From contig NC_092678.1 in NCBI RefSeq assembly GCF_964355755.1, positions 25,276,365-25,340,364 on the forward strand: DNA of 64,000 nt, read 5' to 3'. The DNA comes from Antedon mediterranea. Lineage: Eukaryota; Echinodermata; Crinoidea; Comatulida; Antedonidae. The translations under genes and the position numbers were made by a program. Every line of letters begins with the position of its first letter. Within the stretch, counting starts at the first letter, position 1. Shown here in pieces: positions 3,001 through 57,500 of the stretch. Under the pieces are notes generated by a model. That model was given only the letters and a program-made list of their open reading frames with translations, did not search any database and had not been told where the DNA came from.

Positions 3001-6000
3001 AATTGTTTAAACTTTAGGAATAACCTGGCAACTACTCCATGAGCTGGATTACAATAATTATCAGGTACCAAGACAAGATTACATTCCACTTCCAGTCAGC
3101 GCACGAACCAGGTCAACACGGTTTAGATGGTGGGCACCAATGTCACCAGCCACGCCTCAGCCACAGTGGGCATTGGACGATGTTTATATTGGTACAGTAT
3201 TTCATCTTTTTCTTTGGTTTATGGAATTGCCTTTCTGTTACATTGATATACTGTAACCTAGTGTTGTTTTTCTACTCTAGATTGTCTCTTTCACCCAGGT
3301 GTATAAATGGGTACTGACAATATATAATTAAGTTGAGGTGCTTTATAAACTTTGACCTTCTTTTGATCAATTCTCTACTCTTTTTTCTATTGTTAAAATT
3401 GTACACAGTACCTAATAAAATTAACTTTTAACTTTATTTAGGTGGATCTGAAATTAACAACATCAACTTATTTGCGGATTTTAATGATAATACGATCGAA
3501 GAAACAAAGTGGGATTTTTACCCATATGGACAGCTACGTGCAGGAGTTTGTGGTAACTTTGGTAACTCAATTGGATGGGATCACATATCAGCTGATGATC
3601 GTCATGTTAGTCTCACAACCAGACAGTTGATTGTTGATGCTGAATATATGATTCAGTTTAAGGTACTGATTTGGCCCAATTCCAGAAAGTTTGGTGACAA
3701 CACACCCCAACATTTTCACACCTTTTTCATTGCCACTTCCGCACTCAATATTGTTTAGAATACCATCAATAAGTATTTGGAGTGGACTCTTGTGGTAGTT
3801 AAGTGTGGACTCTTGTGGTAGTTAAGTGTGGACTCTTGTGGTAGTTAAGTGTGGACTCTTGTGGTAGTTAAGTGTGGACTCTTGTGGTAGTTAAGTGTGG
3901 ACTCTTGTGGTAGTTAAGTGTGGACTCTTGTGGTAGTTAAGTGTGGACTCTTGTGGTAGTTAAGTGGTCTGGTCAACTGTGAAATGGTTCTATGTTTTGC
4001 TTGTGTTCCATTCCACATTGCTGTTCTTCTGGTCATTTTAACCATTCTTATATACAATTGAATAATAATTTATATTTCCATACTTTTTATTTATTTAGTT
4101 TATATATTTTAAAACGTAAATATACAGGATAAAAACATATCAGGTATAGATATTGCACCTGTTTTACATATGGTCCTGATACTTAAGTTTATACTTAATA
4201 CTTTCTAGATTGCAGTAGGCTGCTCAAGCCAATCAAATTCATGTCAAACAACTTATCCTGTCTTGTTGCTATTCAACACTGACCCCAGTCATCCAAATTG
4301 GCAGCTTGTAGAACGACAGTGCCTTCCAGGATCAGCCAATCCGCTGTGTCCACCATCGCAGTACCATCCAGGCAGCGTATACTCCGCTAATGACCACAAA
4401 CAGTGGACAATGGTCACTTTAAAACTACCTGCAGAAACGGTCTCAAGGTAAAGTTCGGTCTGCACTCAAATCAAACTACTTTACCATATTTAAGCATATT
4501 ACTACCATATTTGGGTACATCACACTTTTTTGACTTGTATTTTCTTTTATTCTAGTACAACCCAGTTTCGATGGATTCAGCTGTCTGGAAATTCTAGACG
4601 TAGAGCACCTCGATGGTCATTAGATGACATTTACATTGGAGAGGCCTGCCCCTCATTGTGTCATGGTCATGGAACGTGCTTACCTGAAGGATTCTGTGTT
4701 TGTGATGAAGGATATGGAGGTATTGTAGACTGCACATTTTAATTAGGCAATGCTACAGCAGTCTAGAAAACCTACCAAATAGTACATTCTCAATAAAAAT
4801 CAGAATGTCTCCCAAGGCACAAAATTCCAAATTATTTTCTACCATTAAAACATATTCAGAATACCAGACTTTCTGACATATTATGTCAACCAAGGAGTGT
4901 CTGGTATTGAGTTGACTGTATTAGATTCAGATGTTTAAATGCCCTTAGACACCTGCTTGTATAAAATATAATATTCAAATGATTTTAGGGATTGTAGACA
5001 TCATTAAATCATTGTAGACACTCTTTTCTCTGTCTGCATGTACAGTGTATTTTTCAATAGTAATGGATTTAATTATTATTACTACCTTCGTTAATCCTCT
5101 CTAGATGAGTCCTGTACCCCAATCAAGATCTTGCAACAAGATTTCCTTGATAACTTTGAAGGTAGTCTTCTAGCGTCTCGTTGGAGTCGTGTTAGAGGAG
5201 GGCGCTTAGGTGTTGGATGCGGTTCACTTGTTCCGCACGCTCACGGCAAGTCGCTTTACTTTAGTAGCTGTGGATTGCGAGAGGCTATTACTGTGGAGTA
5301 TGACACCAGAAATACAAGGTACTAAGTTCCACTGAATGGTTTCACAATACTTGGCTGATCTGGGAATGGCACAGGGGCCAGTATCTGTAGTGTTAATGCA
5401 GTAAATTCGTTAAAATTAATTCAACAAACATTTATTTCATCAAATGCCTTACAATTTAAACAAAGCATACAATGAGGACCAACCAAGAAGTAAAACTTGT
5501 CTCAGTTGGCCCTTGTAACATGGTTACAAAAAATAACAAGAACAAGTGAGAATATGAATAAATTAATTAAATTAATTAAGTAGAATTTGTTTTATGTTTT
5601 CATTTTAGGGAAATTATATTTGTTATTCAAATTGGAAGTGCACGACCATCCCCATCATGCAACATACATCAGGCGTCTGGGGCAACCACAAATAAGTCAG
5701 TTCTGTTTCAATACACGAATGATAATGGCACAAATTGGAACGTGATTGCGGAACATCACCCACAGTCTTATAACCGTGCGACAAAAGTGAAGTATGAGCT
5801 ACCGATCCAAGCCAAAGCAAATGGCGTGAGGTTCAGGTGGTGGCAGCCATTCCATATGGGGGCAGGATATGATCAGTGGGCTATAGACCATGTTGAACTT
5901 GTGTTGTGAGTAATGATTTTAAAAATCTATTTTGACAAACTAAAATTAGTTTTAAAATAGATTTTTAAAATATCGTATCTTCAAACCAGATGGAACATTT

Positions 6001-12500: not shown

Positions 12501-15500
12501 ATGGGAAATGTACAAGTGCAAGATTTTGCGCCTGTGCGTCAGGATGAACGGCGCGAACTGAACCTTGCGTGTCGAGTTACACCGCAATCATATCAGCAGG
12601 TACTTATGGAAAGTTTCTATATTTTACAAAATATGTGCATTTAGATTTATCAATATAAATTGATAATTATAACGTCATACCTTGAATTACCTTTCAAGGT
12701 AATTCAAGGTATGACGTGACTATGATTCAAATATTACAAAATATTAGTGGTATGACTGTTATTATTGATAAGAATGAAGTATACACTATTTTGTGTTTTT
12801 TCTATGAATTTCTATGTTTAATGAAAACTAATAATATTCTTTCTTTCAGCATGTAGATGGTGTTGCTGTAGAGGGTGCTCTAACTGAGCTTCCGTGGTCA
12901 ATCGTTGACTCTGTCTCTCTCTTTGAGGAAATGGATGCATCGTTCAACGAACTCACAAAAATACCACCAGAGATTCCGCTCCGTTTACCGCACCTCAACA
13001 CGCTGAACTTAAGTCACAATCGTCTGACGTCACTCCCCGATAGCTTTGCTCTCCTTTTTCATCTTAAAAGCGTGCTACTCCATCACAATCAACTTCAAAA
13101 TCTTCCGAAAACTTTCATTCATCTTGTTAAACTACAAAAACTAGATCTGTCGTTTAATAATCTGTTAACTTTACCAGAAAATATCGGTCAAATGGAGTCT
13201 TTAACGAAACTGAATGTGTCGGACAATCAACTGCATCGGATTCCTATTTCACTCGGTGGACCAAATAAAATGAAGGTTCTTCTGGCACTTAACAATCAAT
13301 GTCTGCTGCCACCACAGACAGTTTGTAATGAAGGCTCAGAGGCTTTGTTGAACTTTATTCGTCTTCAGTTTCACAATGGCAACCTGCCAAAAGTTCTGTT
13401 GCCAGGCAATATATTCCCGAGAGTGCGAGGTAAATAAAATGTTTCTCGTTCCTCAAATCATGTACATAAAATACTGTACTTTAAATATGGCAGCCTTCTC
13501 TAAACCACCCAATTACCCAGTATATTCCTCGTCGTATTGTATATTTATATTTATAGCATTCTCGTCTGTTTTAAACATCTCGCTACAGCCTTAGATATTA
13601 CTAATAAAAATGTCTTTATTTTCATGTAATTTACAGGTGATGTACTGAACTCATCTGTTGGTAACCCACACTCAGCTCGTGCTCAGTATTTACAGGAACA
13701 GACACAAACAACTAACACCACCAGCAGAATAAGAACACCGCTTAGACCCACACTTGGTGCTACCACCCTTGACGCTGATGAGCTTAGAGACAAGATTATT
13801 GGTAGATGCTTTGTATTCTTATTCACCACTTTGACTTAATGTGAAATGCATGAAACTTAAGTTAGTTAAGTTAGTTTAAACATAATTTAAAGACCAAATA
13901 GAATACATATAAAGTTGTTGCATGAATATTCATTCAATCTTTCTTTTTTTTGGAATCTCTTGACTGACTACAAGACAACGCCCTCTCCTCTCAGGAGGGC
14001 ATTCCACCTGGAGAGCATCTTTGACTTATATAAAACGTTGTCTATAATTGTTGAGAGAATATTGTGTCATAGGTTAAAGTTCAAGCTTAAGCTTATGTGA
14101 CCCTAAAATTCCTTTTTTTTTTCTATGTAGGGTTGATGTATGGAGCGGCAATTGGTGATGCACTTGGTCTCTGTACAGAGAATCTTACACAAGATGAATG
14201 CCAGTTTTATTATGAAGAAGATGATTTAATTTACAAGAACTCAATAAATGACAAACATCGGCTGCAGTGGGATAAAGGAGACTGGACTGCAGACTTTGAC
14301 CAGATGGTAATTTAAGTTAGCAACTGCTATTGGTTTATCACTCCTAATGAGCCCTCCAACGCTGCGTAGCCATTGTGTTCAATAGTAGGAAGAATGTAAA
14401 ACAAAGAAACTATTGATTTGATTTTTTTTTAATGTATTTTTGTGTCTCGTTTTGCTTGTTTGTGTTTGTTAGATTGTGTTTTACTTTATTTTAATTTTTA
14501 AAAAGTTTGTCAAAACTATAATTTAAAATTTGTGATATTTTTTTCTTGTCAGGTGCTTTTATTGGATTCCATTCTTCATTGGGCTGGAGTAGTGGATGAA
14601 CTGGATTTTGCGAAGCGTCTGTTTCTATGGAGTAAACATGGCTTTCCAGATCTTGGCGACACAAAAGGTTATGAGGAGTTTAGCAATTCTGTCGCAAAGG
14701 TAAAGTGACATCATATTGATATTAGGGACTTTGATGGTCTGTTGGCAGCCCTCCTAAAGCTCTGTCTACACTCTCAAACTAGTTTGACAAGAAAAAAGGT
14801 TGATGTACCCAAATATTGTAGTAATGTCATCGTGTCCATGGGCACATACCATTTTTTTTGTCACATAGTTTTATAGTGTAGACAGAGCTTTAGTTTTTAA
14901 AAAAGAATTGAAGTGTGAAAAGAAAAACACTCCTTTGTCTGTGGCTAGTTGGAAATAAACTTTGAATTTATTAAATAGATTTTTTTATATTTTGTGTAAT
15001 ATATAATATAGAGTTTTGGGTGCACAATGTATGTATAGAAGAACTGTTGAACTCCTTATATGTACCTCAAACTTTATATCTATAAATTGTTTTGTTATTC
15101 TATTTTGAAACTTTATTTTTAGGCTGTACATCACAAAGAATTTACCAAAAAACCGCACGATGTATCGCAAGAAATCTGGCAGAAAGCTTTTGACGAGGAC
15201 GACCCAGAGTCATGTGACCACCTAGCAGACAACGGTGCATTAGTGCGAACCGCGTTACTTGGAATTCCGCATTTTCACGATCTTAAAGAAGTGTCTAGCA
15301 ACGCTATCAGGATATGCAAGGCTACCCATTTTGATCCAAGGTATTATTACAAGATGACAGTAAACGTGTTTGCTACATGATAAAACCTATCTGTAGGTGT
15401 ATTTAGTCTTTTTATTGGAGGCGATAGACAGTGTAGATATTTTTATTACTCCTTTATAAGACTTGGGATTATATAAACAAGTATTAATATGCTTGCTGAA

Positions 15501-23274: not shown

Positions 23275-25691
23275 TCATTCACATGAACCTAATCTCATAG
23301 TCTTTCGAGCACACCTCAATTGTCCACCACACGGACATAATTGACCACTTCTTTGACCAATCCATGGATGTTGAAAACTGTGTACGTTACAGGTTGAGCC
23401 GATTGTTCCAAGGGGAGAGCACTCGCGGTATTGACCGCCTCTACTCACTACACAACAGGATCCTGAAGCCCTTTGTGTTGCGCAATCTAAATCTGTTTGG
23501 CAGGTCTGTTTAAAAATAAAGCAAAAATTCACCGTCAGTTTTATTTTACAATTGAATGGCAAATTCTGTGATTGGAATTTTAAAACTGCAGATAATAAAA
23601 TCTGAATATACAATCTAAATAATATTTGGCAAGAAGTGAATCTGCTAAAATATAAATGTCAGGTTATCTTAAATTGAATGAATGATAATAAATCATTGTA
23701 ATAAAGATAGAGCGTTCAAAAGATGATGAAGTAATTTATATTTATATCAACTTTGAATCTTGTTGATGAAACCTTAATGAACATGATCTTTATTATTTAA
23801 ATAGAAATTGAAAACCATTTAAAAATTAGTTTTGCTGGACTCGGAGCTTAATTGTTAGTAGAGTTCATTTTATCTGTCACTTTAGCAAAAATAACCATTA
23901 TTTGTAGTTTCTTCCATCACTAACTTTAAATGTCAAATTTATCAATTTTCGGTGCTTATTTTTACTCAAGGTTGTGAATCTTTATACTGACATTTTATAA
24001 GAATTTTATTGTACTGAATCTCCACATTATGGATGTATGTCCAGTACTATAGGCACATTTATTTATTTATTTCATTTCATTTATTTATTTATTTCACTTT
24101 ACAAATATATAAATATAAAGTGGAGGAGCCTAAAAGAAAGCAAAGCTTGTGGTGAATAGGCTCCTCAAAACAAACAAAAATTAAATATAAATAATATAAC
24201 ACAATTAGAAACTCCAAAAAAACAATTAAACTAATATCTTTTCTCTAACACATAAGTTTAACATGTTTAAAACTAAAAAAACAAGTAAAAATAGATTATA
24301 TAAATTATTTAAGAAATATCCAAATATATCAATAATAAAAGAATTTACCAAGAACCTTCAACCAATAATAGTTTAAATTGACGTTTAAATAAAGCACAGT
24401 TATGAGATTTTTTTAAGAGATAAAGGAAGAGAATTCCAGAGTTTAGGTCCAGTGTATACAAGGGTATTCATTTTAAGACTAGTTCGAGTAAATGGCAGGT
24501 GATACTGAAAAAAATTATTTAATGATACAAATTGTTGCCTATCAGAAAGGTAACTTCTAAACCATTTTTGAGCCACCCCTCTAATTCCATAGTTTGATAA
24601 TTTATGCAGTAAGATTTCATGATTAACTGTATCGAAAGCTTTGGAGTAATACAGAGTCACATTGTATCACACGTGGTGCCTGTATATCATGTTAAGGTTG
24701 ATTAATTGCCTATACATCAAACAAGCGACACCGTTTTCCGTTCCGTGAAACGGAACAAGTGTGATGATATTGCTTTACGAGAACGTTCGATAAAGTCGAA
24801 GCCGACATTTTAAGCAAAAATTTCATAGAATTCAATTTATTGACATCATTTCCGGTCAGTGTATAATACTTATTGGTTGTTACTAGGTCAGTGATATAAA
24901 AATTATTATGGGTAATGAATGGGGGCGTTGTACGCAAGATAGGTAATTAGCCAGGTACTTATTATTTGTCGTTCTGCGCTCTTTAAATGAAGACCAAACA
25001 TTTTACGTGCAATATTTTCTATTTTAATTACTAACTATACCTAATAAACTTCCTTATATGAGCATAATATAATTTCGTTTAAATTGAAAAAAAAATGTAA
25101 GCGGGCAGTTACCTTTTAATACGTTTGTTAAAAGACAAATTGATCGAAAAACCAATAACTTGTATTGCTATATTCTTGTATAGTAAGTATACATATTTAA
25201 TAGACAAATTACCGCAGTAATACCGAAGTATACATATTCAATAGACAAATTACAGCAGTAATACCAAAGATATGGTGAAACATACAAGATGAAATTCTTT
25301 GAATCATAGTTGTAATGGAGACTCGATCTATGTAGGCCCTACCTAGGCACCCATTGTGCCTTATTTTGATCAAATGTTATACTAACGTATTTAAATCCAG
25401 TCGAATTTAATTTAGTAAATTTAAATTTAAAATTTGTTGGTCGCGTTTAGCCCAGAATATTACCTCGCTGTCGAAAGAACACATCCCTATAGCCGCTAAC
25501 ATGCATACTCTTTATTAGATTAGATAAAATAATTGATAAAAGTTAGGCCTACTTACCAAAATAGATGGAAAACGTTTTTCTTTCCTCATATAATCGTCGT
25601 CGTCGTCGATATAATCAGATATATACATAGCACAAATTACTGTTGGAAGTAAAGTCAATAATACAAATAGTAGATTTGTATTTGGCATCAT
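23275..25691 (-). CDS. Prokineticin/astakine-like secreted cysteine-rich peptide, paralogue 1
   Basis: Two exons: 25691-25557 (45 codons) and 23505-23275 (76 aa + TGA); 121 aa, with a phase-0 intron. Exon 1 opens MMPNTN, followed by a hydrophobic signal sequence (LLFVLLTLLPTVICA), an acidic stretch with five consecutive Asp, then MRKEKR-FPSIL. KR is a likely proprotein-convertase site, leaving FP at the mature N-terminus. Exon 2 has ten cysteines in the order C-x5-C-x7-CC-x9-C-x8-C-x16-C-x-C-x6-C-x8-C, including GSCCV, CSPLG and LCPCGG, as in the colipase fold of prokineticins and astakines. It lacks the AVITGA start that vertebrate prokineticins need for receptor activation. It probably acts as a hormone or cytokine. 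A possible TATA-like ATAAATAG lies about 60 bp upstream. The 2-kb intron holds a truncated retrotransposon. Confidence 0.85.
24060..24663 (-). mobile_element. Internally deleted non-LTR retrotransposon
   Basis: On the minus strand SKAFDTVNHEILLHKL and WFRSYLSDRQQFV are a reverse-transcriptase palm segment. It is joined directly to YTGPKLWNSLPLSLKK, which normally lies near the C-terminus of such ORFs. The catalytic box and everything between are missing, so the copy is dead. A tail of TTTATTTA-type repeats at 24060-24100 would be its 3' end. It lies in the intron of the peptide gene, same strand. Confidence 0.85.
25185..25275. repeat. About 50-bp direct duplication
   Basis: AGTATACATATTTAATAGAC + AAATTACCGCAGTAATACC is repeated once with three or four changes. 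It lies in the intron of the peptide gene. Confidence 0.8.
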
Positions 25692-26644
25692 TTCTAAGTT
25701 TCGTCTAAGTTCTCTTCTTTTTTACGTTAAGTACACACTTCTTTTTCTATTTATCCCGTTTGATCTACGCCGAACCGTGACGCCTAGAATAAATGTCTGC
25801 TGACGTGCCCAGTTGAGAAATACATCATATTCTGGTCAATATTCCTAAGTAACAACCTTACCTTCGCCGTACAACTTAAATTATAATTGTCTAACTTTTG
25901 GAACGAATCCTGGCGGTTTTTAACGATATCTGCAACAGTTTTTATAACAACATTTAGTCTTGATTGGATGATAATATAAGTGACGGATCCAATAGGAAAG
26001 CACCGCTTATTACCTTATACGAACTGCTTTCGTTATTTTCTTCTTACGTTCATCGATAATTGACGTTCCACAAATATATCGAACCATTCAACTCCTACTT
26101 TATTTCGTTAATTATATCAGTTTTTATCCGTACATTTGAGCATGATCTTAGTAATATTAAAATCGATCTATTTATCGATCTATCTTGGCTAGGTCAATAT
26201 CAAACAATACAAACAGAGAACCCATCCCTACAATAATTAATATTTTAAACAATAGTTCATAGAGCCAAAGCGACAGAGTGATATTGTTGTAATTTTTATT
26301 TCATTGTTATTAGGCCTACATCCTTGTTATTGTACAGTAATGTTGTAAATGCAACGTTTTTAGCCTTGCGGCTACGGGGCGGCCGTATGCGGCTACTTGT
26401 TGTGAATGTTATACCCGAATAAATAAATATTCTTTTTCTCTCTAACCAGTGTCATAAGAGTTCACAGCAGAAGTATTTGAGGCTCGGGTTGGGGGCGACG
26501 TCGGTGGTTATTTCAGCATTATATGTACGTTATAAGGATTCTTTTATTACTAATCTCTCTATCTAAACATTTTTTTTTCGCAGATGTCGTGATAGAGCAT
26601 TATATTTTACTAGCTTGGTTTCCTATCATACTCTTAAAAACCAA

Positions 26645-26715
26645 TCTTTTTTCTATTTTTTTCTCTCAGCGCTTTGGGACAATCTTTTGATTGTATAAGC
26701 GCTATATAAATCGAA
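26645..26715 (+). mobile_element. L2/SINE-type 3' tail
   Basis: CAGCGCTTTGGGACAATC and TATAAGCGCTATATAAATC are the typical 3' tail shared by L2-like LINEs and the SINEs that use them. Confidence 0.65.
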
Positions 26716-27394
26716 CAACATTACATTATGGAACACTGATCAAAAATGATGATCCAAGCTATCGCTTGTAATTGGTCAGATTACCTGCGCCGACCTCTTG
26801 CCTTACGCACCAACTTATTTCGTTACGCACAAACGTATTGCGTTGCGTCTAAGTTTGAACCATTTGTATAATATATTATTTGCGTTGCATTCATTTGTTT
26901 TGATAAATTTTCCTACTTAAAAACGCGTCATCTGATATAATAACATTTTATTCAATATTTAAAATTATTTATTGACACTATTCCGGTATATTTAAAATTA
27001 AATTCAATAGAAATATTGAACGATTATTGAATACCGTATAATATGTAGACTATTCTATAAAGTACACATTACTTTTGAGATGGCTATCTTGAATGTTAAA
27101 ACTAATAATAACGAAAGACTATAACGTTGTGACCTTAAACGATCATTACTGTAGTAGGATGTGTATTATGCCAAGCATTCTAGTAATCTCAATGTCATTA
27201 CGATATGTATAGATACACTGTGTTTAGTTATTGAATAATAATCACCAATAATCATATATTCAAATTGCATGCATCGGATGGTGTTAATGTGTCTTACCGT
27301 TATATCTTATCATTATTGTAATACCGTTATTAGTTTTAAAGGAGTTGGATAGTGACGTTGATGATGACGTTGTTGTGCGCCATACAAGTAAGGG

Positions 27395-27635
27395 CGTATA
27401 TTGAACCAAAGTATTAACCAATCATAAGCGACAGTTCGGATGGTCCATCGTGACGCGATTGGTAAAAGTACGCGTTGCGCGCTTACGTACGCCCTTGCAT
27501 TGCGTCCCATTAGGACGCAACGTACGGACCTAAGCCGCAACGCAACGAATTGACCAATCAAAAGCGACAGTTCGAATAATCCATCGCTTTTGATTGGTCA
27601 ATTTGTTTGCGTTGTGTGGCTTAAGTCCCTGCGCG
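27395..27635. mobile_element. MITE family B derivative, compound foldback
   Basis: Two adjacent foldback cores are visible. The first has CAATCATAAGCGACAGTTCG and the second TTGACCAATCAAAAGCGACA followed by ATCGCTTTTGATTGGTCAAT. They are joined by GCGTTGCGCGCTTACGTACG and GACGCAACG segments. The outer ends are not clear. Confidence 0.7.
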
Positions 27636-28959
27636 GCATCATAGGAAGTAAGTTGTTGTTTTGTTGGTTGAGCATTGAGAAACATAACTTGTAGGTCTAT
27701 CGTTGAATAATCAATTACTTTTTTTTAGTTTATGAGCTTATCCATTTAATAACAATATGAATTGCTTTGATTAACTGTGTGGTAATCAGCATATATTAGG
27801 TTTAAAGGTGTCAGAAATGCAAATGAGATGTTTGCATCACCATTATGTCCATCGTCATCATTATTATCCAATCTATCTCCTTCCTTCAGTAAAAGGTCTT
27901 AACTCAAAAACTGTTCTTACCTTTTATTAGAAGCATTTTGGTCACATTCGCTACCATGCAATATTCAGCCATTCTCAGTAAACGCAGACTACATTGCATT
28001 ATGTCATTTTTGTTGTGGCTCAAATCGAATATTATAATATTAATAATATACTATGTTTTAGCAGACACAGTAAAAGTTTGCTGAAATAGACTGATCATTT
28101 TAAAAAGTAAAATAATTATGTAATAATGCTATAAGGGCCCTATAATATAGTATTGGCATTATTTTGTCTGGCTGGAAGGGCTCCCTCTATATATCAAACA
28201 TAACTTTCTTAAACATTAATGTATACTGTGATTACGACTGATAAATTAAATGATTATAACTTGTATATATCCATCCATTGGTACGGTGTGGTATTGAACT
28301 TAAGAAATGCAAAGATCAACTTCAGGAACTTAATGTACGGTAGTTGTAAACGATCTTTCAGTAATTGAGAAAAATTGTTTGGACATTATCCCGAGGAGCT
28401 AAATCTATAGTAGGAAATGTCATAAAGTATGCGAAATCATAGTTTGTCACGGAATAGGCTATAATGAAGAATATATCTCGGCGGCATAGTAATGGAATAG
28501 GATGACGTCACTGCTCACCTTCTGTAAAAAAATGTTTCGTAATGTGTTGTGTTCATGTTATGTAAATTATTTCAATTCTATGTGTTTCTCTGTGTTTACA
28601 GTATATACGGTAATAATATATTTACCGGGCGGTTTCATTCCGTGCCTGTTAATTTAAATATCAATAATATATTGTTCAAAAACCACGCACAATTATATAA
28701 CATTATGTTATGACGTCAGCAATTGATGGAATCGTCCATAATGTTTAAATTACTTAAGTAACAAGTTGTCATGAATCCTGAAATAAATTCGTACCACCCA
28801 CCGCCATTTTGATAATAGATGAATACATTTTAATGCGGCGCGCACGCCACCTACATTTTTAGCCGGAGGCTTACATTATAACCGATCACTTACTTGGTAC
28901 CTTTTTTGTTTACTCTGTACACTGACGTCAGACTTTGGGTCGGTATCCCTGAGTTTTCC

Positions 28960-29545
28960 AATGATAAAATTTGCGGACGACTCGGCTATGGTTGGACTTA
29001 TTAATAATAACAATTCTTCTCTATACCTTTCTGAATAGTTAAGAAGTTAAATACAATTAGGCTGTACTGCCTGAGGAAACTCGGTTCGTTTGGAGTAAAG
29101 CAGGATATTTGTAAAATGTTTTACTCATCAGTGATGTTATCTATTTGGGGTTATTGTATGTTGGGCTGGGCTGGAAATATCAGTAAAGGGGATAAAGACC
29201 GAATTGAAAAGGTGCTGGGTAGAGCGGGGAAATTAATTGGTTCGTCTGTGCAAACGCTTTACTCTTTCTACAGCGAACGTCTTGCCGATGTGTTCCATGC
29301 TATATTGGAAGACACCAACCATCCTCTTCATAACGACATTATCGGCTCCGTTATCGTTAGAAGTGGTAGAATGAGGACGGTGAATGCACAGACGGACCGG
29401 TACAAGTACTCGTTCTACCCAGTTTGGATAAGGCATTATAACAAAACATTTGTTAGATAGTCCCATTTATATTTATTTATTTAGGCAAGCCAAGGTTTAT
29501 GAGCACTGTAATTTCCATTAATTTTTTGGACAATAAATGAATCTG
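28960..29545 (+). mobile_element. Non-LTR retrotransposon 3' portion (reverse transcriptase end)
   Basis: KFADDSAMVGLI near 28968-29003 is the reverse-transcriptase catalytic box. After a stop and frame breaks, a frame at 29116-29460 reads CLRKLGSFGV (upstream of its first ATG), MFYSSVMLSIWGY, VLGRAGKLIG, ILEDTNHPLHNDI and TDRYKYSFYPVWIRHYN, the usual C-terminal end of fish/L2-type LINE ORF2. It ends in AATGAATCTGTATCTGTATC repeats. The copy is 5'-truncated and dead. Confidence 0.88.
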
Positions 29546-29879
29546 TATCTGTATCTGTACAGATTATTATATAAGATAGTATTATCTCTAAGGAGAAAAC
29601 ATGATATGATAAGTTCATTTACAATTTTGTTTTAGAATTCCTTAATGAATGTACGCGTGCATGCTTTTCAGTGCATATCACCATGGTATCACCTACATCA
29701 TCATTTATATCAATCAATGTTATCTATGATGTTATTTTATATTATTTATATTACACAATATTTATAAACGCATGACTGCGATATTTTATCAGTTATGATT
29801 TCAGCTGATAACCTTTATTTCATTTATTAATATTTCAGTTAAATATGGTTTTATATTGAAGTTCAAATACAATTTTTTT

Positions 29880-30038
29880 TACTTTAACCATATTTAATGA
29901 GGGTGATCCATCCAGCATTTGCTGATCATTTGGGACCCCCAGAACAGATACAATATACAAAATACAACAAAAACAGAAAAGTAAAAGGAAAACAAAAAAA
30001 AATAAAATTAATTACATAAGACTAAAAATCCTTGACAA

Positions 30039-30072
<34 letters not shown>

Positions 30073-30215
30073 TTAGATCTACTATTTTACAATTAAAATC
30101 TGGAAAAGGATTACATAGTTTTGAGAAAAGTCATAAGTCTAGTTTTGAAAGAGGAAAAGGATGAGGAATTGCGGATAGATAGAGGATACATATATAATAA
30201 TTCATTTCCGGTTAT
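29880..30215 (-). mobile_element. Non-LTR retrotransposon 3' end
   Basis: On the minus strand a short frame reads NELLYMYPLSIRNSSSFSSF then KTRLMTFLKTM and a stop, like the last residues of LINE ORF2. It is followed by an untranslated region with an (AT)n tract near 30040-30060. Confidence 0.65.
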
Positions 30216-30339
30216 TTTATTTATTTTTTTATTAGTCAAAAACGTCTTTTTTGCCAATTGATCGGAATATGTTCACCTCCTCTTCGCCTCCGTTCTTTCC
30301 TGTCTTATTACTTGTGTTGAATAAGGTGTTAGTTCCTGA

Positions 30340-30475
30340 TATATATGTGTGTCCCCTTAATATATGTGTGTCCCCTTAATATATGGGTGTCCCCTTAATA
30401 TATGGGTGTCCCCTTAATATATGGGTGTCCCCTTAATATATGGGTGTCCCCTTAATATATGGGTGTCCCCTTAAT
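30340..30475. repeat. 19-bp minisatellite, about 7 copies
   Basis: Tandem TATATGGGTGTCCCCTTAA; the first copies have TGTGTG in place of GGGTG. Confidence 0.92.
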
Positions 30476-31104
30476 ACGATACGATAGTATTTATTGTCAT
30501 TTTAACAACAATCAGGTACAAATGGCATTTGGTTGGTTTGTTTACATTTTGATTTACAGTACAGTACAATGAATACAAAAGAAGCGTGTAGCCAATGAAT
30601 GCTGCGTAAACGGCCTTCCATAGTAACCAATAAATAGGTGGTGTTTCCAAAGGAAAGGGAACGATATACTATATCCTGTATTAGGATTTCTGTATTTTGG
30701 TTTTATTCATAGATGGAACTTTTAGTTAGGAAGTATGAATTACGTCATAATACTATACTAAATCTTGTGTATTCACAATATTATATTAGTGATTCCAATC
30801 AAAGTGTATCAGGTTGGCCGGCAAGATTATGAGGGCAGCAAACACTATCTTTGCCATTGTGTGTTGATTGGCGAGATTACGATATAAAGTAGTTTTGTTG
30901 GCAGACTTCATGTGTAACTCCAGATTTTAATATTTACCTTTAAATTGTATTATTTACCTTTAAATTGTATTTAGAGGGCAGTCTAACGGAGACAGCATCT
31001 TGGAACCCATTTTAATTGCTGCAATTGTCCAGCGATGCGTCTATATTTTCTGTTTTTAGAAATGCGACAACCTGAAGATTTTTATAAATAGGCCTATAGA
31101 CTTG

Positions 31105-31192
31105 ACGATGTCATATCACTAACAAATTTGAGCACAACCATATTTTGACAAACTTTTTTTGTCAAACTAGTTTGATAGTGTAGACAGAGCAC
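31105..31192. mobile_element. MITE family A copy, left-truncated
   Basis: GACGATGTCATATCACTA followed by GTCAAACTAGTTTGATAGTG and TAGACAGAGC is the right half of the element. Confidence 0.75.
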
Positions 31193-32492
31193 TAGGGGGA
31201 TTTTAATTATTACCTCGATTTTTTATAAAGCATTTATTCGATTCAATATTTACGTATTACATTTTTAAGATAAACACGTTGATATATTTCAGTCTGGCTC
31301 CTTAAATATAAATTTGTACTTTTCATTAATCAGAGATAAATATAACTCTTACATAGGACGCCCTCTAAACGTTCTGTTGAATTCGTATTTATGAGTTTAA
31401 TATTTGTTTAGGTAGTATTGTGAAATTAATTTAAATGCCTATCAAATGTTTTTTTAAACACATACAATATTGAAAAGCGTATCGTTCACTCATTACGTCA
31501 TTCCGTCAAAATGACGTCATTCAGTCGTATATATCGACTAGATTAATTAAATTGTAGAGTATAGTTACAGTGTATATTGTAATTAATATGAAATAAATAT
31601 TTACCTGTCGTATGCCGTCAATCAGTCGTTTGATTATGGCCAACTTACTACCATACTTAGACCTTCCGGATGTCCTAATATGGAACATTAAGTATACTAC
31701 TATAGTATCAATTATAAATGTTAGGGTATTTCCCATAGAAAATAAAGGAAATATTCTTAGCATGATGTTTCTTTCTTTAAAAAAAAACAAAAATGTAATT
31801 TATTGGAACATTAAAATGTAAACATGATTGTGTTTCCATTAATGGGTTGACTAAAAGTGTGTTGGCCTATTACTCTAATTTGTGTTTAAATTATACATTA
31901 TTTTGTTTTATAATGTTCTCTTTTTTTTACAATATTTCGAATTGTTATGAATTAAATCAAACTCAAAATTCTTGCTCGATTTAATACGAAATATCTAAAA
32001 GAACCGCAACTTTACCCAGCGGCCATTTTGCAATATTTCCAAACAGCTTTTAAAATTGACTTTTATTAAATATAATGATATAATGAAAGCTGAAAGTGAA
32101 CTTTTTAGTCCACCCCCTTCTTTTTCTAACAAATGATAAATTTAATAATTTAAGATGACAATTCTGTTCATGTTTCTATGAATTAGCAGTTAGTTGTGTT
32201 GTTCTTGATTTGTACAACTGCTGATCGAGATAAATGTGCAATCATTTGAGAAGGCGTACATGTCTCATTTTGTCGTCTTCTGGTTCAAATTAAATTCCGT
32301 TATTTCCTTAGAGATCTGCCTTGGTCAATTTTCTTTCTAGAAACTGTTTACCCCGAAATCATTATTTTTGCCGCATGCAAAGATATTTAATAATAATAAT
32401 AATATATACTTATGCTATAGGCCTACACTTTTTTTAAAGCACATGGTAGATTTCTTAATGTTCTTTAGCCGCTCCGTTGTTCTCTGTCCCTC

Positions 32493-32573
32493 ATTATTTG
32501 AACGCGCACGCGCGCGTTACATATGTGATATATGAACGCGCGCGCACATGTAGCAGTAGTATTAATTACTATG
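32493..32573. repeat. CG-alternating block, copy 1
   Basis: ATTATTTGAACGCGCACGCG, TACATATGTGATAT, GAACGCGCGCGCACATG and GCAGTAGTATTAATTACTAT. The same order recurs at 34315-34411. Confidence 0.75.
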
Positions 32574-32743
32574 GCATTGTTTTAATTGTAGAGTGCATTA
32601 TCAACACTCATAGTTTTTTTTCTTTTGTATGAATAAAGTTATCTTATCTTCATATCTTATCATATACTATTTCTGTCAATATTTAGATATATTTTCTTAG
32701 TTTCTCATAGTTCAGTATATACAGTGGTTCAAATGAGAGAGTA

Positions 32744-32904
32744 TTAAGCTCTGTCTACACTATCAAACCAGTTTGACAAAAAAGTATGATGTGCCCATAT
32801 ATGGTAGTGATATGCTTAGATATGGTAGTGATATGACATCATCATGTCCATATATGATTCACATTTTTTTGTCACTTAAAGTTTGATAGTGTAGACAGAA
32901 CTTG
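32744..32904. mobile_element. MITE family A copy, near complete
   Basis: Ends TTAAGCTCTGTCTACACTAT and GATAGTGTAGACAGAACTT are inverted. The interior has TATGGTAGTGATATG twice and GACATCATCATGTCCATATA. Confidence 0.9.
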
Positions 32905-34314
32905 AGGTAGGTTTGTTAATTTTTAACGTAAATCATATTTTCACATTTTTTAACTTTCTTGGTATGCGTAATTTAGCTATATATTTTGACGATATTTTAT
33001 TAATTTAATACCTGCAAACGACTTGATGTCTCCACTGTTAGAATGTACGTTCATTCATCATCTACAGTAGACCTAAGATCCGGTTCTACCTCAACTCAAG
33101 AATCTTACTTATAATGTTGCCTCTCCAATCACATTCTAATCACTAATCACATTGTCCTTTTGGCCTGTTGTTTACACCAAATTTAATTAAATTATCCATT
33201 CTTAATGTCATTTAGACGACATTAGAGACGGCTGAGCCCAAACGTGATTTCTTTACCAACGCGTGTATTTGTGGGTGCGGTTTGTGGCCAATGCCCCTGG
33301 CGCTGACCAAAATAAACTAGTATGTTACGACTCAGCTATGTACTGCATTCATATATTTTGGATAACAACACGTACGTGTACCTGTTGATATGAACTTCGA
33401 AGTCCTATTTACACATTCTTTTTAAATGTTATATAAGGTCCAAAAAATGTTACAAAACAAACATAAATCGGACATAATTATGATGATATAAGGCAAATGT
33501 TATAGGCCCTATATATCATTTTTAGTTAACTTAAAGTGCGCCGTTTACTGTCAATATATGTGTTGTTATAACTCATAATAGTGTAAATATAGGATATAAT
33601 AACTCTTTTTTATAATAGTTCTTAACAAATATTAATAATCTTTTAAACTAAATCGGATTCATGCTTACTTTCTCTCCCCTGTTGTACGTTGTGCGTCTCA
33701 CTTGTATATTTCTCGTCATCGTTTTATCAAACAGTCACAGTATCATCCTCTCATCATAACACATCCGCGTATATTCGTATTTTTATCAGTGTTTGTGCGC
33801 GCTCACCACAATTCAGTCGTTATATCATACAAAGTAAATCAAAATAGACACAATTTTCCATTCAAAATTCAATAATTTATTTTAACGTGTTCGTTGACAA
33901 ACAATAAATACAGTTTTTGTCCAATTTGTTTGACAAATACTGGACATACTATTAAATGACACTGTGGGTCATTTTTATCTCAATAACCTGACCCCGTAAG
34001 GCCAGACATGGAATTAATATTTAAATAAATAACCCCCTAGAAGTTGGCATTGGATGTGACACCTACTCATCACATAGTTTGGATTCCATACTATTGTATG
34101 TTGAGGTGTACATCACACAATCACAGTTAGTTTATGATATGTTGTAAAATATCACTGGCCGCATTGTTTACTGTTGTTTTAAACTGATAACAATTCTCAT
34201 TAATCATTAAAAAAATATTTTAAAGTAATAAATTCTGTAATAAAACAATCAAACAACTTCCTATTAATAATAATTATTCAATAAAAAATAGTTCAAGGTT
34301 GTTAAAAATATAAC

Positions 34315-34411
34315 TTATTATTTGAACGCGCACGCGCGCGATACATATGTGATATGTGAACGCACACGCACGAGATAGATATGTGGCAGTAGCTTTTTAT
34401 TAATTACTATG
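34315..34411. repeat. CG-alternating block, copy 2
   Basis: TTATTTGAACGCGCACGCGC, TACATATGTGATAT, GAACGCACACGCACGAG and GCAGTAGC followed by ATTAATTACTATG. It is an imperfect copy of 32493-32573. Confidence 0.75.
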
Positions 34412-35229
34412 TGTTTAATTAGCACCGTGTAGGATGTGGATTAGTAACCCATGGGGGGAAGCAGTCTTAATACCGTCTACATTACACATTTAAACGCAAC
34501 TCTTTATAAGGATATCGGTAGAAGAATAACATAAATGACGTCAAAATCTCGACGTTCCCATGTTAAAATTGAAATTGATAAATGAATTTGGTTTCGGTAT
34601 CAAACATAAAAGGAAACATTGTACGTGATACGTTAATATTTGTCTTTGGGGATTAAATACAATATTAAAAGTCAGTGCAATAAGGATTAAAATGTTAAAC
34701 TGTATAGGCTTAATAGCCCCTCCATGGTCAACTTATGACGTCATTTAAATAATTATCACTTTTACAATCGTAATTAAACAAACATGAGTGTACACATTTC
34801 AATAGTCTGCCTTTGAGAATAATTATTGTGCAAAATATCCTTCAACATATTCCAAACAAATGTCCACTTGAAATATCTTGTATTGCTACTTTTTCTTCTT
34901 AACTAATTTGTTACATAATTTATGTATAAAAATAAACATTTTGTGTATTGCACTTTATGTTACAAGGCGCCTTAATAAATAATGGCTATTAACAGTTTTT
35001 CACAACTTCTGTCCCATGACACAGCAGTTTCGTATCGGTGAGCTTCTTCAAATGGGAAACCTGCCCATTGCGCGTATTATAATTGTTCCGTTTGTACGCC
35101 GCCAGTTTGACTGAACGTACGCGCGCGGCTAATTCTTCATCTGGCACATAAGTACTGAAGTTTTACTATCTTCTTGTACCCTGCTTCTGATGAGGCTATT
35201 TCAGTATTCATTTCATTTTCGTACAATGT

Positions 35230-35820
35230 TCAGCCAGTAGCACATACACCCTTCCTCCGTCCGTTCGGTATCGAACAGTGTAAGCCCGATGAGCAGGGGC
35301 ATCTTGTAAATAGTTGGTCTGGTTGTATAGGGTTCGGCCTATTGACGCAAGTGTGCCCAACACCAGGCCGCCTTCGACATACTTGACGACCAAAATGCAT
35401 AGCACAACAGTGGCTGCTGGGACAGCCCGAGTTTGAATCACACATTGTTCCCATTGGCTACAAAAAGAAAATCAATCATTTAGAATACATAAATGAAGTA
35501 ATATACAAACGAATTTGAATGCATTTTTAGTCACAACATTTCGAATTATTTCGATGGCTCGAAAATAAAATAAATCGGCTGCAAATTAGGTACTGATGAT
35601 ACCGTACTATGTTTAAATTGTTCAATTAAACAGTAAAGAAGGCTTGATTTAAAGATATAAAATATAAACATGTGATAAAACTTACAACTTTAGGAAACCT
35701 CTTTTCTCTGTGATGCTCTTCTGTTTCTTCAATATCAATCACAGGACTGCCATTACACATGCAGGCCATACAGACAAACAGACAGAATAATACTGAAGTA
35801 TGTATCATAATAACTTCCAT
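35230..35820 (-). CDS. Prokineticin/astakine-like secreted cysteine-rich peptide, paralogue 2
   Basis: Two exons: 35820-35686 (45 codons) and 35457-35230 (75 aa + TGA); 120 aa. ATG 35820 is the first in-frame ATG; an upstream TTG in the same frame is not needed. Exon 1: hydrophobic signal sequence (IHTSVLFCLFVCMACMCNG), acidic propeptide (DIEETEEHH), then REKR-FPKV. Exon 2 starts PMGTMC and has ten cysteines: CDSNSGC, SHCCAM, QVC, HTC, RCPCSS, LHC, GVC, the prokineticin/astakine pattern. Exon 1 has the same codon number as in the paralogue at 23275-25691, the intron is phase 0 at the same place, and the KRFP cleavage site is shared, so the two are tandem duplicates. The intron is only 228 bp. 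No AVITGA start. A TATAAAG with an ATTGG box lies about 150 bp upstream on the same strand (35972-35990). Confidence 0.86.
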
Positions 35821-54442: not shown

Positions 54443-54571
54443 AAGATTTCTAATTAACCATGGTTTAATTTTTATGTTAGCTTTGAGTGCATGATGTAAT
54501 ATCAATGGTGTCGTCTGTTTTTTTCAGATTTCTAAATTCATTCTCTGTAAAGAAGAACCAGGACAAGAACC

Positions 54572-57500
54572 ATGGCGGTAATAGAGAGTACGAAACCAAA
54601 CAACTGGAAATGGTTCTGCGGCAAGAACTCTGCAGACCTTGCCTTCTTCAATGACTTTCAATGGGAAAAGAACTACACGTACGGAAACACGTGTTTTATG
54701 AGCGCGTCATACGTCATCCCGCACGCGTTGTTTTTCGTCGTGTTCACCATCATCATGGCGTACCTTGCGTACTCTAAAAATAACGTTTTTACGACGAGGT
54801 ATTTGATCCGTTTTCCCGGACACGTTGTGCGATGGTTAGTTTCCAGTGTTTTACTAATGGTTTTAATTGCTTCAATCGGAGAGGGAATTTTAACGGATCA
54901 AACATTTAAAGGTGACCCGACGCAACCTCATCTTTATCTCACTGGTTGTATGTCAGTCATTACGCTGGTGACGTCACTTGCGGCGTATCAATGTATGGAG
55001 GTAGCGAACGCCACGTATATATCAATAACATGCGCACTTTACTGGATTTTGGCGATTACAGCAGAGGCCTTCAGAATAGTTGGCTTGGACTACATGGGCC
55101 TGGCATCTGTTGAAACATTACGTTTTAATGTTAGTTTAATATCGTTAGTTGGATACTCGATTATTTTACTTGTTGAATTAAATGTTCTTCGCGGAAAGGT
55201 AAAGTACATATAACAACATAAACATTTTTTTAACGTAATAGAACAATCTAAAATTGTACAGTATACATTTATGTTTTTGTTTTTACTTGCTATTTCTGTT
55301 ATATGTAAAGATGACCCCTTTTCACACAGGCCTACCGCGTGTGTTGTCTCACCTATGGTGATCTTGACAGTGGGGACATGCCAGAGGGTGATATGTACTA
55401 CAAGGACCAGTACGTGAATGCTGTCTCTCAGATTAGTTTTTGGTGGCTGAATTGGTTGCTAAGAATGGGTTATAAACGCCCTCTTGAAGTAGATGATCTA
55501 GGATCGGTTCCTGATGATTTCGACAGTAGCAATAAATTGAACGATCTTAACGAAGCATTCGAAAATGAAAAGGTAATAGATAAAGGCAAAGATCCATACT
55601 GGACAGTTGGGAAACCCACCTAGTAGCGCGATGCGTATTTTTAAAAGACGCGCCCACAGACACGTGCGTCCAAACCTCAGAAGATTTATTTCACTATTTC
55701 AGGAAAAGGGAACATTTTTAGTCGGTGACATCGTTGAATGTTTTTATTCTTATTTGTTATATTGTTATATTATAAATCATTTAAATAACAAAGGTAATTG
55801 TGTGTTTTTAATTTTAGAAAAGAGCTGAGAGTAAACACATTCTGCCTTCTCTTTGGAGGGCGTTTGCTGTTGTATATGGTAAAAGTCTTCTAATTTCTGG
55901 TCTTTTCAATTTATGTGGTAACCTCCTTAGCTTCATTGGACCAGTCCTTGTTGGCGATATCGTGACGTATGTAATTACGATTATGTACGAGCCAGACACC
56001 GACAATGAGGTACAATATCGTCTTGTTTTTGTTTTTTTCGCGAATATTTATACCACTTGGATGCAACGCCAGGACGTAAGCACAACCCAAGCAATTTGAC
56101 CAATCACGACGCTATATCCGAACTGTCGCTTGTGATTGCGCGTATGCCTTTACGCTGCGTGTATGCCATTATAATGTGCATATGCCCGTACGTTGCGCGT
56201 ATGCCTTACGTTGCGCGTATACTTTTACGTGCGTCAAAGTTGCGTTAGTGAGCTAAGTAAAGCGTGGTTCCCACTAGCGACGCAACGCAAGGACGTAACG
56301 CAACGCAAGTGAATTGACCAATCACAAGCGATGGCTTATTCGCTTGTGATTGCTAACTGTCTATAACTTCGTTTGTCATTGGTTAAAACGCTTGCGTTGC
56401 GTTTACGTCCTTGCGTTACGTTCTAGTGGGAACCAAGCTTAACAATTTTCAAAATAGTTTACTATAATATAAAAATATATAACTGTTTATTTTGCTAGCC
56501 TAGTCACTTTGTAACAACGAAAGAATATTTCGATAATGGGTTCATCCTAGTAGGGTTGATGTTCTTTGCTGGAGTAGGCAAGTTTGTTTGCATACAGACG
56601 TCCTTCCATTTAGCGATCTTGGAATCAATGAAAGTGCGAGTTGCGGTTCAGGTAACAACTGCTATGTTTTCTATTATAGTAAATTTAACTTCTAAAAATA
56701 TTTTTCTATACTTTTATTGTCAGTCACTATACTAAATATGTTCACAATTATAAAAATATGCTGGTTTCCCTTTTACATTTATATTACACATACATAGATA
56801 AATTAAATGTCTTTTACATTGTTCTTCTTATTACTATCTTTGTTCTTCTTATTACTATCTTTGTTCTTCTTATTACTATCTTTGTTCTTCTTATTACTAT
56901 CTTTGTTCTTCTTATTACTATCTTTGTTGTTCTTATTACTATCTTTGTTCTTCTTATTACTATCTTTGTTCTTCTTATTACTATCTTTGTTGTTCTTATT
57001 ACTATCTTTGTTCTTCTTATTACTATCTTTGTTCTTCTTATTACTATCTTTGTTCTTCTTATTACTATCTTTGTTCTTCGTATTACTATCTTTGTTCTTC
57101 TTATTACTATCTTTGTTGTTGTTCTTCTTATTACTATCTTTGTTGTTCTTATTACTATCTTTGTTGTTCTTATTACTATCTTTGTTCTTCTTATTACTAT
57201 CTTTGTTCTTCTTATTACTATCTTTGTTCTTCTTATTACTATCTTTGTTCTTCTTATTACTATCTTTGTTCTTCTTATTACTATCTTTGTTCTTCTTATT
57301 ACTATCTTTGTTCTTATTACTATCTTTGTTCTTCTTATTACTATCTTTGTTCTTCTTATTACTATCTTTGTTCTTCTTATTACTATCTTTGTTCTTCTTA
57401 TTACTATCTTTGTTCTTCTTATTACTATCTTTGTTCTTCTTATTACTATCTTTGTTCTTCTTATTACTATCTTTGTTCTTCTTATTACTATCTTTGTTCT

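What the first reader, a model, noticed from the sequence alone, without database searches (positions are those of the whole stretch)
23275..35820. Tandem pair of prokineticin/astakine-like hormone genes in an invertebrate
Two minus-strand genes 10 kb apart share exon 1 length (45 codons), a phase-0 intron, a signal peptide, an acidic propeptide, a KR-FP processing site and a ten-cysteine domain with the CC and CPC spacing of prokineticins. They look like an expanded, little-described secreted signalling family; vertebrate homologues act in gut, rhythm and angiogenesis, and crustacean astakines in blood-cell formation.
Basis: partly seen in the sequence, partly recalled or inferred. Interest (0 to 1): 0.72.

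Follow-up and report, generated by a model that had tools for sequence, protein, structure and literature searches.

The report
Feather-star prokineticin-like hormone gene pair
Two neighbouring genes in what is probably a feather-star genome encode small, disulfide-rich secreted proteins of the prokineticin-like hormone type, one ordinary and one that looks partly like a Wnt blocker; the type was already known from related animals.

Summary
In detail: both minus-strand two-exon genes lie at the stated coordinates, with 45-codon first exons, a phase-0 intron, a KR-FP site and a ten-cysteine domain in one exon. The genome is most likely a crinoid's (crinotocin sequence found).

Gene A passes Pfam's Prokineticin cut-off (33.8 against 21.6 bits). 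Gene architecture still places B with A: both, and a third gene on another contig, have a signal peptide, propeptide, KR and a phase-0 intron just before the domain, while the genome's Dickkopf1/2/4 gene has a phase-1 intron there.

Three genes resemble prokineticin receptors and are split inside DRY like mouse PKR genes. All three ligands lack the vertebrate AVITGA head and Trp24. I infer secreted, KR-processed ligands with a new head acting on these receptors.

Ambulacrarian RFP-type prokineticins were reported in 2024, so this is a new member of a known kind; the unusual part is a Dickkopf-like domain in a prokineticin gene frame. There are no transcript or binding data.

The parts
25557..25691 (-). 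Gene A exon 1: signal peptide, acidic propeptide, KEKR cleavage site, FPSIL
   Evidence: 45-codon translation ending at a gtaagt donor, phase 0
23506..25556 (-). Gene A intron, 2051 bp, phase 0; holds a fragment that looks like a LINE reverse transcriptase
   Evidence: gtaagt...ttaaacag; the LINE reading is by eye
23275..23505 (-). Gene A exon 2: whole ten-cysteine prokineticin domain, 76 aa, with stop
   Evidence: translation; PF06607 33.8 bits over cut-off 21.6; nearest folds MIT1/Bv8
35686..35820 (-). Gene B exon 1: signal peptide, acidic propeptide, REKR cleavage site, FPKV
   Evidence: 45-codon translation ending at a gtaagt donor, phase 0
35458..35685 (-). Gene B intron, 228 bp, phase 0
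   Evidence: gtaagt...tttgtag
35230..35457 (-). Gene B exon 2: whole ten-cysteine colipase-type domain, 75 aa, with stop; Dickkopf-CRD2-like
   Evidence: translation; PDB matches DKK1/2; fold DKK1 Z 8.7

Best explanation
A and B are two linked, probably anciently duplicated genes of the ambulacrarian prokineticin-like family in a crinoid. Each precursor enters the secretory path, is cut after the KR pair by a furin or prohormone convertase, and releases an 81-residue (A) or 79-residue (B), five-disulfide colipase-fold protein that begins with Phe-Pro. I infer that the free FP head enters, and the folded domain docks on, prokineticin-receptor-like GPCRs; the genome holds three candidates. Gene A keeps the canonical head length (six residues before the first cysteine, as in AVITGA). 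Gene B, and a third gene C elsewhere, form a second ligand type with a nine-residue head and, in B above all, a more Dickkopf-like core. Shown here: gene layout, Pfam membership of A, fold class of B (moderate-confidence model), presence of the receptor-like genes. Inferred: secretion, cleavage, disulfides, receptor pairing and action.
For: Exon layout and reading frames. PF06607 over cut-off for A. A against recalled human PROK1/PROK2: z 9.0 and 8.4 with cysteines held fixed in shuffles. The third gene C on contig 2 repeats the layout: signal peptide, propeptide, GKR, phase-0 intron, ten-Cys exon. B-C similarity z 7.0-8.0. The own-genome DKK1/2/4 gene (PF21481 44.2 and PF21479 34.3 bits, both over cut-off 27) has a CRD1-like exon (by eye) and a phase-1 intron before CRD2, unlike A, B and C. 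The B model matches colipase-fold proteins, the A model more weakly. Three receptor candidates score 202, 189 and 180 bits against recalled PROKR2; the best solved GPCR of any kind scores 152 and 148 for the two that were searched. In 3 of 3 the exon break lies in DRY, phase 2, the site reported for mouse pkr genes (PMC8877203). Published ambulacrarian K/R-RFP-K/R signature (PMC11521371).
Against: B has no PF06607 match and its best relatives are Dickkopfs. A-B similarity is not clearly above what the cysteines alone give (54 of 500 and 51 of 500 shuffles reach it; 32 of 300), so a recent tandem duplication is not shown. A also resembles recalled DKK3 (z 5.7), so z-values do not separate the two families cleanly. 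AVITGA and Trp24 are missing in A, B and C; the Trp24 place is Gly in 3 of 3. The models come from two-row alignments and the five versions differ (mean pLDDT 73.7 down to 47.2 for B, 68.0 down to 45.2 for A); A has no Foldseek match at E<=0.001. No transcript, peptide or binding data. The nine-row tree is unresolved.
Confidence: 0.68

Rival explanations
1. Gene B (perhaps with C) is a single-domain Dickkopf-type Wnt antagonist that binds LRP5/6 rather than a GPCR ligand; only A is a prokineticin-type hormone.
For: Best PDB matches DKK1/DKK2 CRD2 at E 8.8e-7 to 2.5e-6; fold Z 8.7 and 8.5 to DKK1, 7.6 to MIT1, 7.4 to DKK2, 6.2 to Bv8. B keeps the residues aligned to DKK1 H204, F205 and R236, which contact LRP6 (PMC5325476; PMC4436448; alignment). 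Hydra dkk1/2/4 also lacks CRD1 (PMC6425005).
Against: Of eight DKK1 residues named in those passages (R203, H204, F205, W206, K211, S228, E232, R236) B keeps 3; W206 is Gly. The two-exon gene has no second cysteine domain. PF21481 stays under cut-off (17.4 against 27). The intron phase differs from the genome's own DKK1/2/4. The KR-FP site in exon 1 is shared with A, and a separate DKK1/2/4 gene exists.
Confidence: 0.2
2. The proteins are not hormones but prokineticin/colipase-fold effectors of another kind, for example defence or digestive-gland peptides that act outside the body or on microbes.
For: The colipase fold also serves in venom peptides, protease inhibitors and colipases (recalled, and PMC8877203; fold lists); B has a weak MIT-like atracotoxin profile match, 20.5 bits against cut-off 27.5.
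Against: PROKR-like receptor genes are present; A passes the prokineticin cut-off; the genome searches showed three genes of this layout and no large array, though their counts are lower bounds.
Confidence: 0.1
3. One or both genes are unexpressed relics, and the joins are fortuitous.
For: No RNA data; A's intron is 2 kb and carries a retroelement-like fragment.
Against: Intact frames, consensus splice sites, TATAAA motifs 255 bases (A) and 158 and 338 bases (B) before the ATG, ten cysteines kept, the same layout in three genes.
Confidence: 0.04

Closest known systems
Ambulacrarian and Xenoturbella prokineticin-like ligands with the K/R-RFP-K/R signature (PMC11521371; passages read; figure not seen)
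   Same: RFP next to the N-terminus of a ten-cysteine prokineticin domain; two ligands in X. bocki; PROKR-family receptors with paralogues.
   Different: A reads K-RFP-S, B reads K-RFP-K, and C has GKR-AM with no FP. Tandem linkage and a Dickkopf-like core are not mentioned in the passages read.
Vertebrate prokineticins PROK1/PROK2 and Bv8
   Same: Ten cysteines, colipase-type fold, intron just before the cysteine domain (PMC8877203, passages), six-residue head before Cys1 in gene A.
   Different: No AVITGA and no Trp24; an acidic propeptide with a dibasic site is added; the cysteine domain is in one exon, where human PK1 uses two.
Dickkopf CRD2 (PF21481/PF21479; DKK1, DKK2)
   Same: B's closest sequence and fold match.
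   Different: No second cysteine domain in the gene, profile under cut-off, different intron phase from the own DKK1/2/4, W206 replaced by Gly.
Arthropod and mollusc astakines/prokineticins
   Same: Same broad domain family and lack of the AVIT head (PMC8398477, passages).
   Different: No prokineticin-type receptor is known in protostomes (PMC8557429, PMC8398477, passages), whereas this genome holds three candidates. Astakine signature sequences were not compared.

Membership tests
Prokineticin domain family (PF06607), gene A | Profile score over Pfam's gathering cut-off | tested here: met
   33.8 bits against 21.6, E 4.1e-8; 33.4 for the exon-2 domain alone
Prokineticin domain family (PF06607), gene B | Profile score over Pfam's gathering cut-off | tested here: not met
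   No PF06607 row at E<=10 in two scans
Prokineticin domain family, A and B | Ten cysteines in order C-C-CC-C-C-CxC-C-C | tested here: met
   Translations and alignment
Prokineticin domain family, gene B | Colipase-type fold | tested here: met
   DKK1 Z 8.7 (rmsd 3.0, 72 aligned), MIT1 Z 7.6 (4.0, 71), colipase Z 6.2 (3.6, 69); Foldseek E 3.5e-5 to DKK1. Model pLDDT 73.7, two-row alignment
Prokineticin domain family, gene A | Colipase-type fold | tested here: inconclusive
   Best rows are of this fold, MIT1 Z 6.0 (rmsd 3.1, 68 aligned), Bv8 Z 5.1 (4.0, 64), colipase Z 4.4, but no Foldseek match at E<=0.001 (best 1.7e-3); model pLDDT 68.0
Prokineticin domain family, A and B | Disulfide pairing of the family | not testable with these tools
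   No coordinates are returned; Dickkopf CRD2 and prokineticins share the colipase fold, so pairing would not tell them apart (recalled)
Vertebrate AVIT prokineticins | Mature N-terminus AVITGA | tested here: not met
   Predicted heads FPSILT (A), FPKVPMGTM (B), AMKVSGSQS (C)
Vertebrate AVIT prokineticins | Trp24 after the CC pair | tested here: not met
   Gly at that place in A, B and C, 3 of 3
Ambulacrarian/Xenoturbella RFP prokineticins | K/R-RFP-K/R at the N-terminal side of the domain | tested here: inconclusive
   B fits (K-RFP-K); A fits except the last place (K-RFP-S); C does not; definition read as text only
Dickkopf, gene B | N-terminal CRD1 (Dickkopf_N) | tested here: not met
   Two-exon gene with one cysteine domain and no Dickkopf_N row at E<=10
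Dickkopf, gene B | CRD2 subdomain profiles over cut-off | tested here: not met
   PF21481 17.4 bits against 27; PF21479 not listed
Prokineticin receptors, three candidate genes | Closer to PROKR than to other peptide GPCRs | tested here: inconclusive
   180-202 bits to recalled PROKR2; best solved GPCR 148 and 152 for the two searched, third not searched; two other GPCRs of this genome score 107 and 98 to PROKR2. No tree with named receptors was made
Prokineticin receptors, three candidate genes | Intron inside the DRY motif at the end of TM3 | tested here: met
   3 of 3, phase 2; site as in mouse pkr genes (PMC8877203)

The most novel reading that the evidence does not exclude
Gene B, with gene C, is a surviving link between Dickkopf and prokineticins: a prohormone-processed ligand with a Dickkopf-CRD2-like surface (H204, F205 and R236 equivalents kept in B) in a prokineticin gene frame, and it may still touch LRP5/6, so that one tandem locus makes both a GPCR hormone and a Wnt modulator.
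Probability: 0.1. Interest if true: 0.72.

Novelty: new member of a known kind. Interest (0 to 1): 0.4.

Why it matters
Prokineticin receptors are reported from deuterostomes and xenacoelomorphs and not from protostomes (PMC6188537, PMC8557429, PMC11521371, passages), and vertebrate ligands need the AVITG head and Trp24 to act (PMC8877203). Here ligands without both features sit in the same genome as three receptor candidates, so one can ask directly what the ancestral receptor-activating head was. A linked pair in which one copy is a plain prokineticin and the other leans towards Dickkopf also bears on how the two colipase-fold signalling families parted.

Tried and rejected
Other prokineticin copies: PF06607 over the whole genome gave 3 matches: gene A; one on contig 3 (23.1 bits, over the cut-off, but with two stops inside); one on contig 5 (17.4 bits, under the cut-off, one stop inside). 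The last two were not kept. PF17556 gave 2 matches, B and a place in a 782-aa open frame that I did not follow, both under the cut-off. PF21481 gave 40 matches: 1 over the cut-off (the own DKK1/2/4); B and a Dickkopf-like exon on contig 1 below it; 5 partial ones elsewhere and 32 in one repeat array on contig 7, none followed. The whole-genome counts are lower bounds by the tool's own note.

A recent A/B duplication: not supported, because similarity outside the cysteines is close to that of shuffles; B pairs with C instead.

A nine-row tree of domains was unresolved: 0 of 6 inner branches well supported, 5 of 6 drawn open. It is not used.

Disulfide pairing as a test between Dickkopf and prokineticin was dropped, since the fold is shared (recalled).

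Mitochondrial code for naming the phylum: no COX1 match in the assembly. The crinotocin sequence served instead.

Absence of named families from the fold lists was not used as evidence.
Full report
What is there. Two minus-strand genes lie at 25691-23275 (A) and 35820-35230 (B). Each has a 45-codon first exon with a hydrophobic start, an acidic stretch and a KR pair followed by FP. A phase-0 intron with consensus ends follows, then one exon that holds a complete ten-cysteine domain. The window holds no third copy by a loose cysteine pattern, and 40 shuffled windows hold none.

What organism. The genome (354 Mb, 18 contigs) gave one neurophysin match. About 8 kb upstream lies a stretch encoding a signal-peptide-like start and CFWRTCPVG-GKR. 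That is crinotocin, the vasopressin/oxytocin-type peptide of the feather star Antedon mediterranea (PMC9793003). A Trp-Arg pair at positions 3 and 4 is stated for the three crinoids studied and distinguishes them from other echinoderms. The library held this peptide string in one paper. I therefore place the window in a crinoid; the species is not known.

Gene A. It passes Pfam's Prokineticin cut-off (33.8 against 21.6 bits). Its best solved relatives are MIT1 and Bv8 (E 1.5e-8 and 7.3e-8). Its model (pLDDT 68.0) is closest to the same two, but only moderately (Foldseek E 1.7e-3 and 1.1e-2, none at E<=0.001; Z 6.0 with rmsd 3.1 over 68 residues, and 5.1 with rmsd 4.0 over 64). With cysteines held fixed in shuffles, its similarity to recalled human PROK1 and PROK2 stands 9.0 and 8.4 standard deviations above the mean; it also resembles recalled DKK3 (5.7) and C (3.5). 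After cleavage at KR the head FPSILT has six residues before the first cysteine, the length of AVITGA.

Gene B. It has no Prokineticin match at E<=10. Its best solved relatives are Dickkopf-1 and -2 C-terminal domains (E 8.8e-7 to 2.5e-6); Bv8 is at 0.07. Its model (pLDDT 73.7) is closest to DKK1 (Z 8.7, rmsd 3.0, 72 aligned), then MIT1 (7.6), DKK2 (7.4), colipase and Bv8 (6.2). Against fixed-cysteine shuffles, B resembles gene C (z 7.0), recalled DKK3 (6.6), DKK1 (6.1), the genome's own DKK1/2/4 (5.1), recalled PROK2 (3.9), the own Dickkopf-like exon of contig 1 (3.4) and recalled PROK1 (2.3); it barely resembles A (1.5). Gene C is nearest to B (8.0) and recalled PROK2 (6.3), then recalled DKK3 (4.3), DKK1 (4.0), A (3.3), the own DKK1/2/4 (3.1), recalled PROK1 (3.0) and the contig 1 exon (2.5).

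Why B is still placed with A. The third gene, C, on contig 2 (exon 1 at 24900825-24900998, exon 2 from 24901194) has the same plan: signal peptide, propeptide, GKR, phase-0 intron five codons before the first cysteine, and one ten-cysteine exon. C scores under both the Prokineticin and the Dickkopf cut-offs (13.6 bits each). B and C both end exon 1 with lysine-valine and the same donor. The genome's own DKK1/2/4 gene has a CRD1-like exon (by eye), and its intron before the second domain is phase 1. A Dickkopf-like domain on contig 1, which I call DKK3-like from recall, also starts after a phase-1 acceptor. Of the three genes only A and B have KR-FP.

Receptors. Six of the 35 form three pairs: three first exons (43-46% identity over TM1-3) and three second exons (27-33%). 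Joined, they score 202 (contig 4), 189 and 180 bits (contig 5) against PROKR2; two other GPCRs from the same list score 107 and 98. The remaining 27 were not identified. Searched against solved structures, two of the three reach at most 152 and 148 bits with any solved GPCR; the third was not searched. The PROKR2 query itself showed no solved prokineticin receptor among the 60 rows shown of 145. The exon break lies inside DRY in 3 of 3, as reported for mouse pkr genes (PMC8877203). A prokineticin receptor-2 gene is named in a sea-urchin ageing study (PMC7280269, one passage).

Mechanism. The likeliest reading is a secreted, KR-processed ligand whose freed head enters a prokineticin-type receptor while the disulfide-rich body docks outside. 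In vertebrates the head is AVITG(A), and Trp24 is crucial for binding (PMC8877203). Here both are absent: heads FPSILT, FPKVPMGTM and AMKVSGSQS, and Gly at the Trp24 place in 3 of 3. So either the crinoid receptors read a different head, or the ligands use another receptor. The published remark that the RFP signature lies where the chordate activating sequence lies (PMC11521371) fits the first. I add that the R of RFP belongs to the dibasic site, so FP would be the true N-terminus; this is inference.

Rival for B. Passages in two papers name eight DKK1 residues in LRP5/6 or Kremen binding: R203, H204, F205, W206, K211, S228, E232, R236 (PMC5325476; PMC4436448). By the alignment, B keeps three (H204, F205, R236), has Arg for K211, and differs at R203 (Met), W206 (Gly), S228 (Ile) and E232 (Gln). 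This is suggestive, not a test.

What is known. Prokineticin-like ligands are known across bilaterians and in cnidarians (PMC6188537, PMC6425005, passages). The ambulacrarian RFP form and two Xenoturbella ligands were reported in 2024 (PMC11521371, passages; figure and source data not seen). A crinoid neuropeptide survey does not use the word prokineticin in its main text, and its sections 7, 33 and 36, which I read, do not describe these genes; its supplements were not seen. Literature searches. I did not find the A/B linkage or the Dickkopf-like paralogue described in the papers that I opened (passages or sections).

Verdict. A real gene pair, a new member of a known kind, with one divergent paralogue worth a proper tree and a receptor assay.

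Noticed in passing
G000 contig 2, 24900825-24901460 (L017 8826 onward, L004): Third gene of the same layout (gene C), with CPLVC instead of CPC and GKR-AM instead of KR-FP.
   Followed up: yes
G000 contig 5, 25.88-25.95 Mb and contig 4, 33.59-33.62 Mb: Three two-exon GPCR genes that resemble prokineticin receptors, two of them neighbours; as many as the ligand genes found.
   Followed up: partly
window 745-5909 (+): Reelin subrepeat B matches in 3 of the 10 ORFs scanned: part of a reelin-like gene.
   Followed up: partly
window 54551-55213 (+): ORF matches the N-terminal domain of sulfonylurea receptors ABCC8/ABCC9 (E 3.7e-21); later plus-strand ORFs up to about 63700 may belong to it (not tested).
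   Followed up: partly
window 56819-58055: 21-bp tandem array of about 59 copies, open in several frames on both strands; a 74-bp array starts at 58578 and runs to the end of the range searched (60000).
   Followed up: no
window 24660-24500 (-): Fragment reading like a LINE reverse transcriptase inside gene A's intron (by eye).
   Followed up: no
window 12835-13437 (+): Leucine-rich-repeat protein exon (PF13855, E 3.2e-20).
   Followed up: no
L003/L018, contig 1 near 35537215: Dickkopf-like domain exon (10 cysteines in its open frame) with a repeat array upstream; the rest of the gene was not traced.
   Followed up: no
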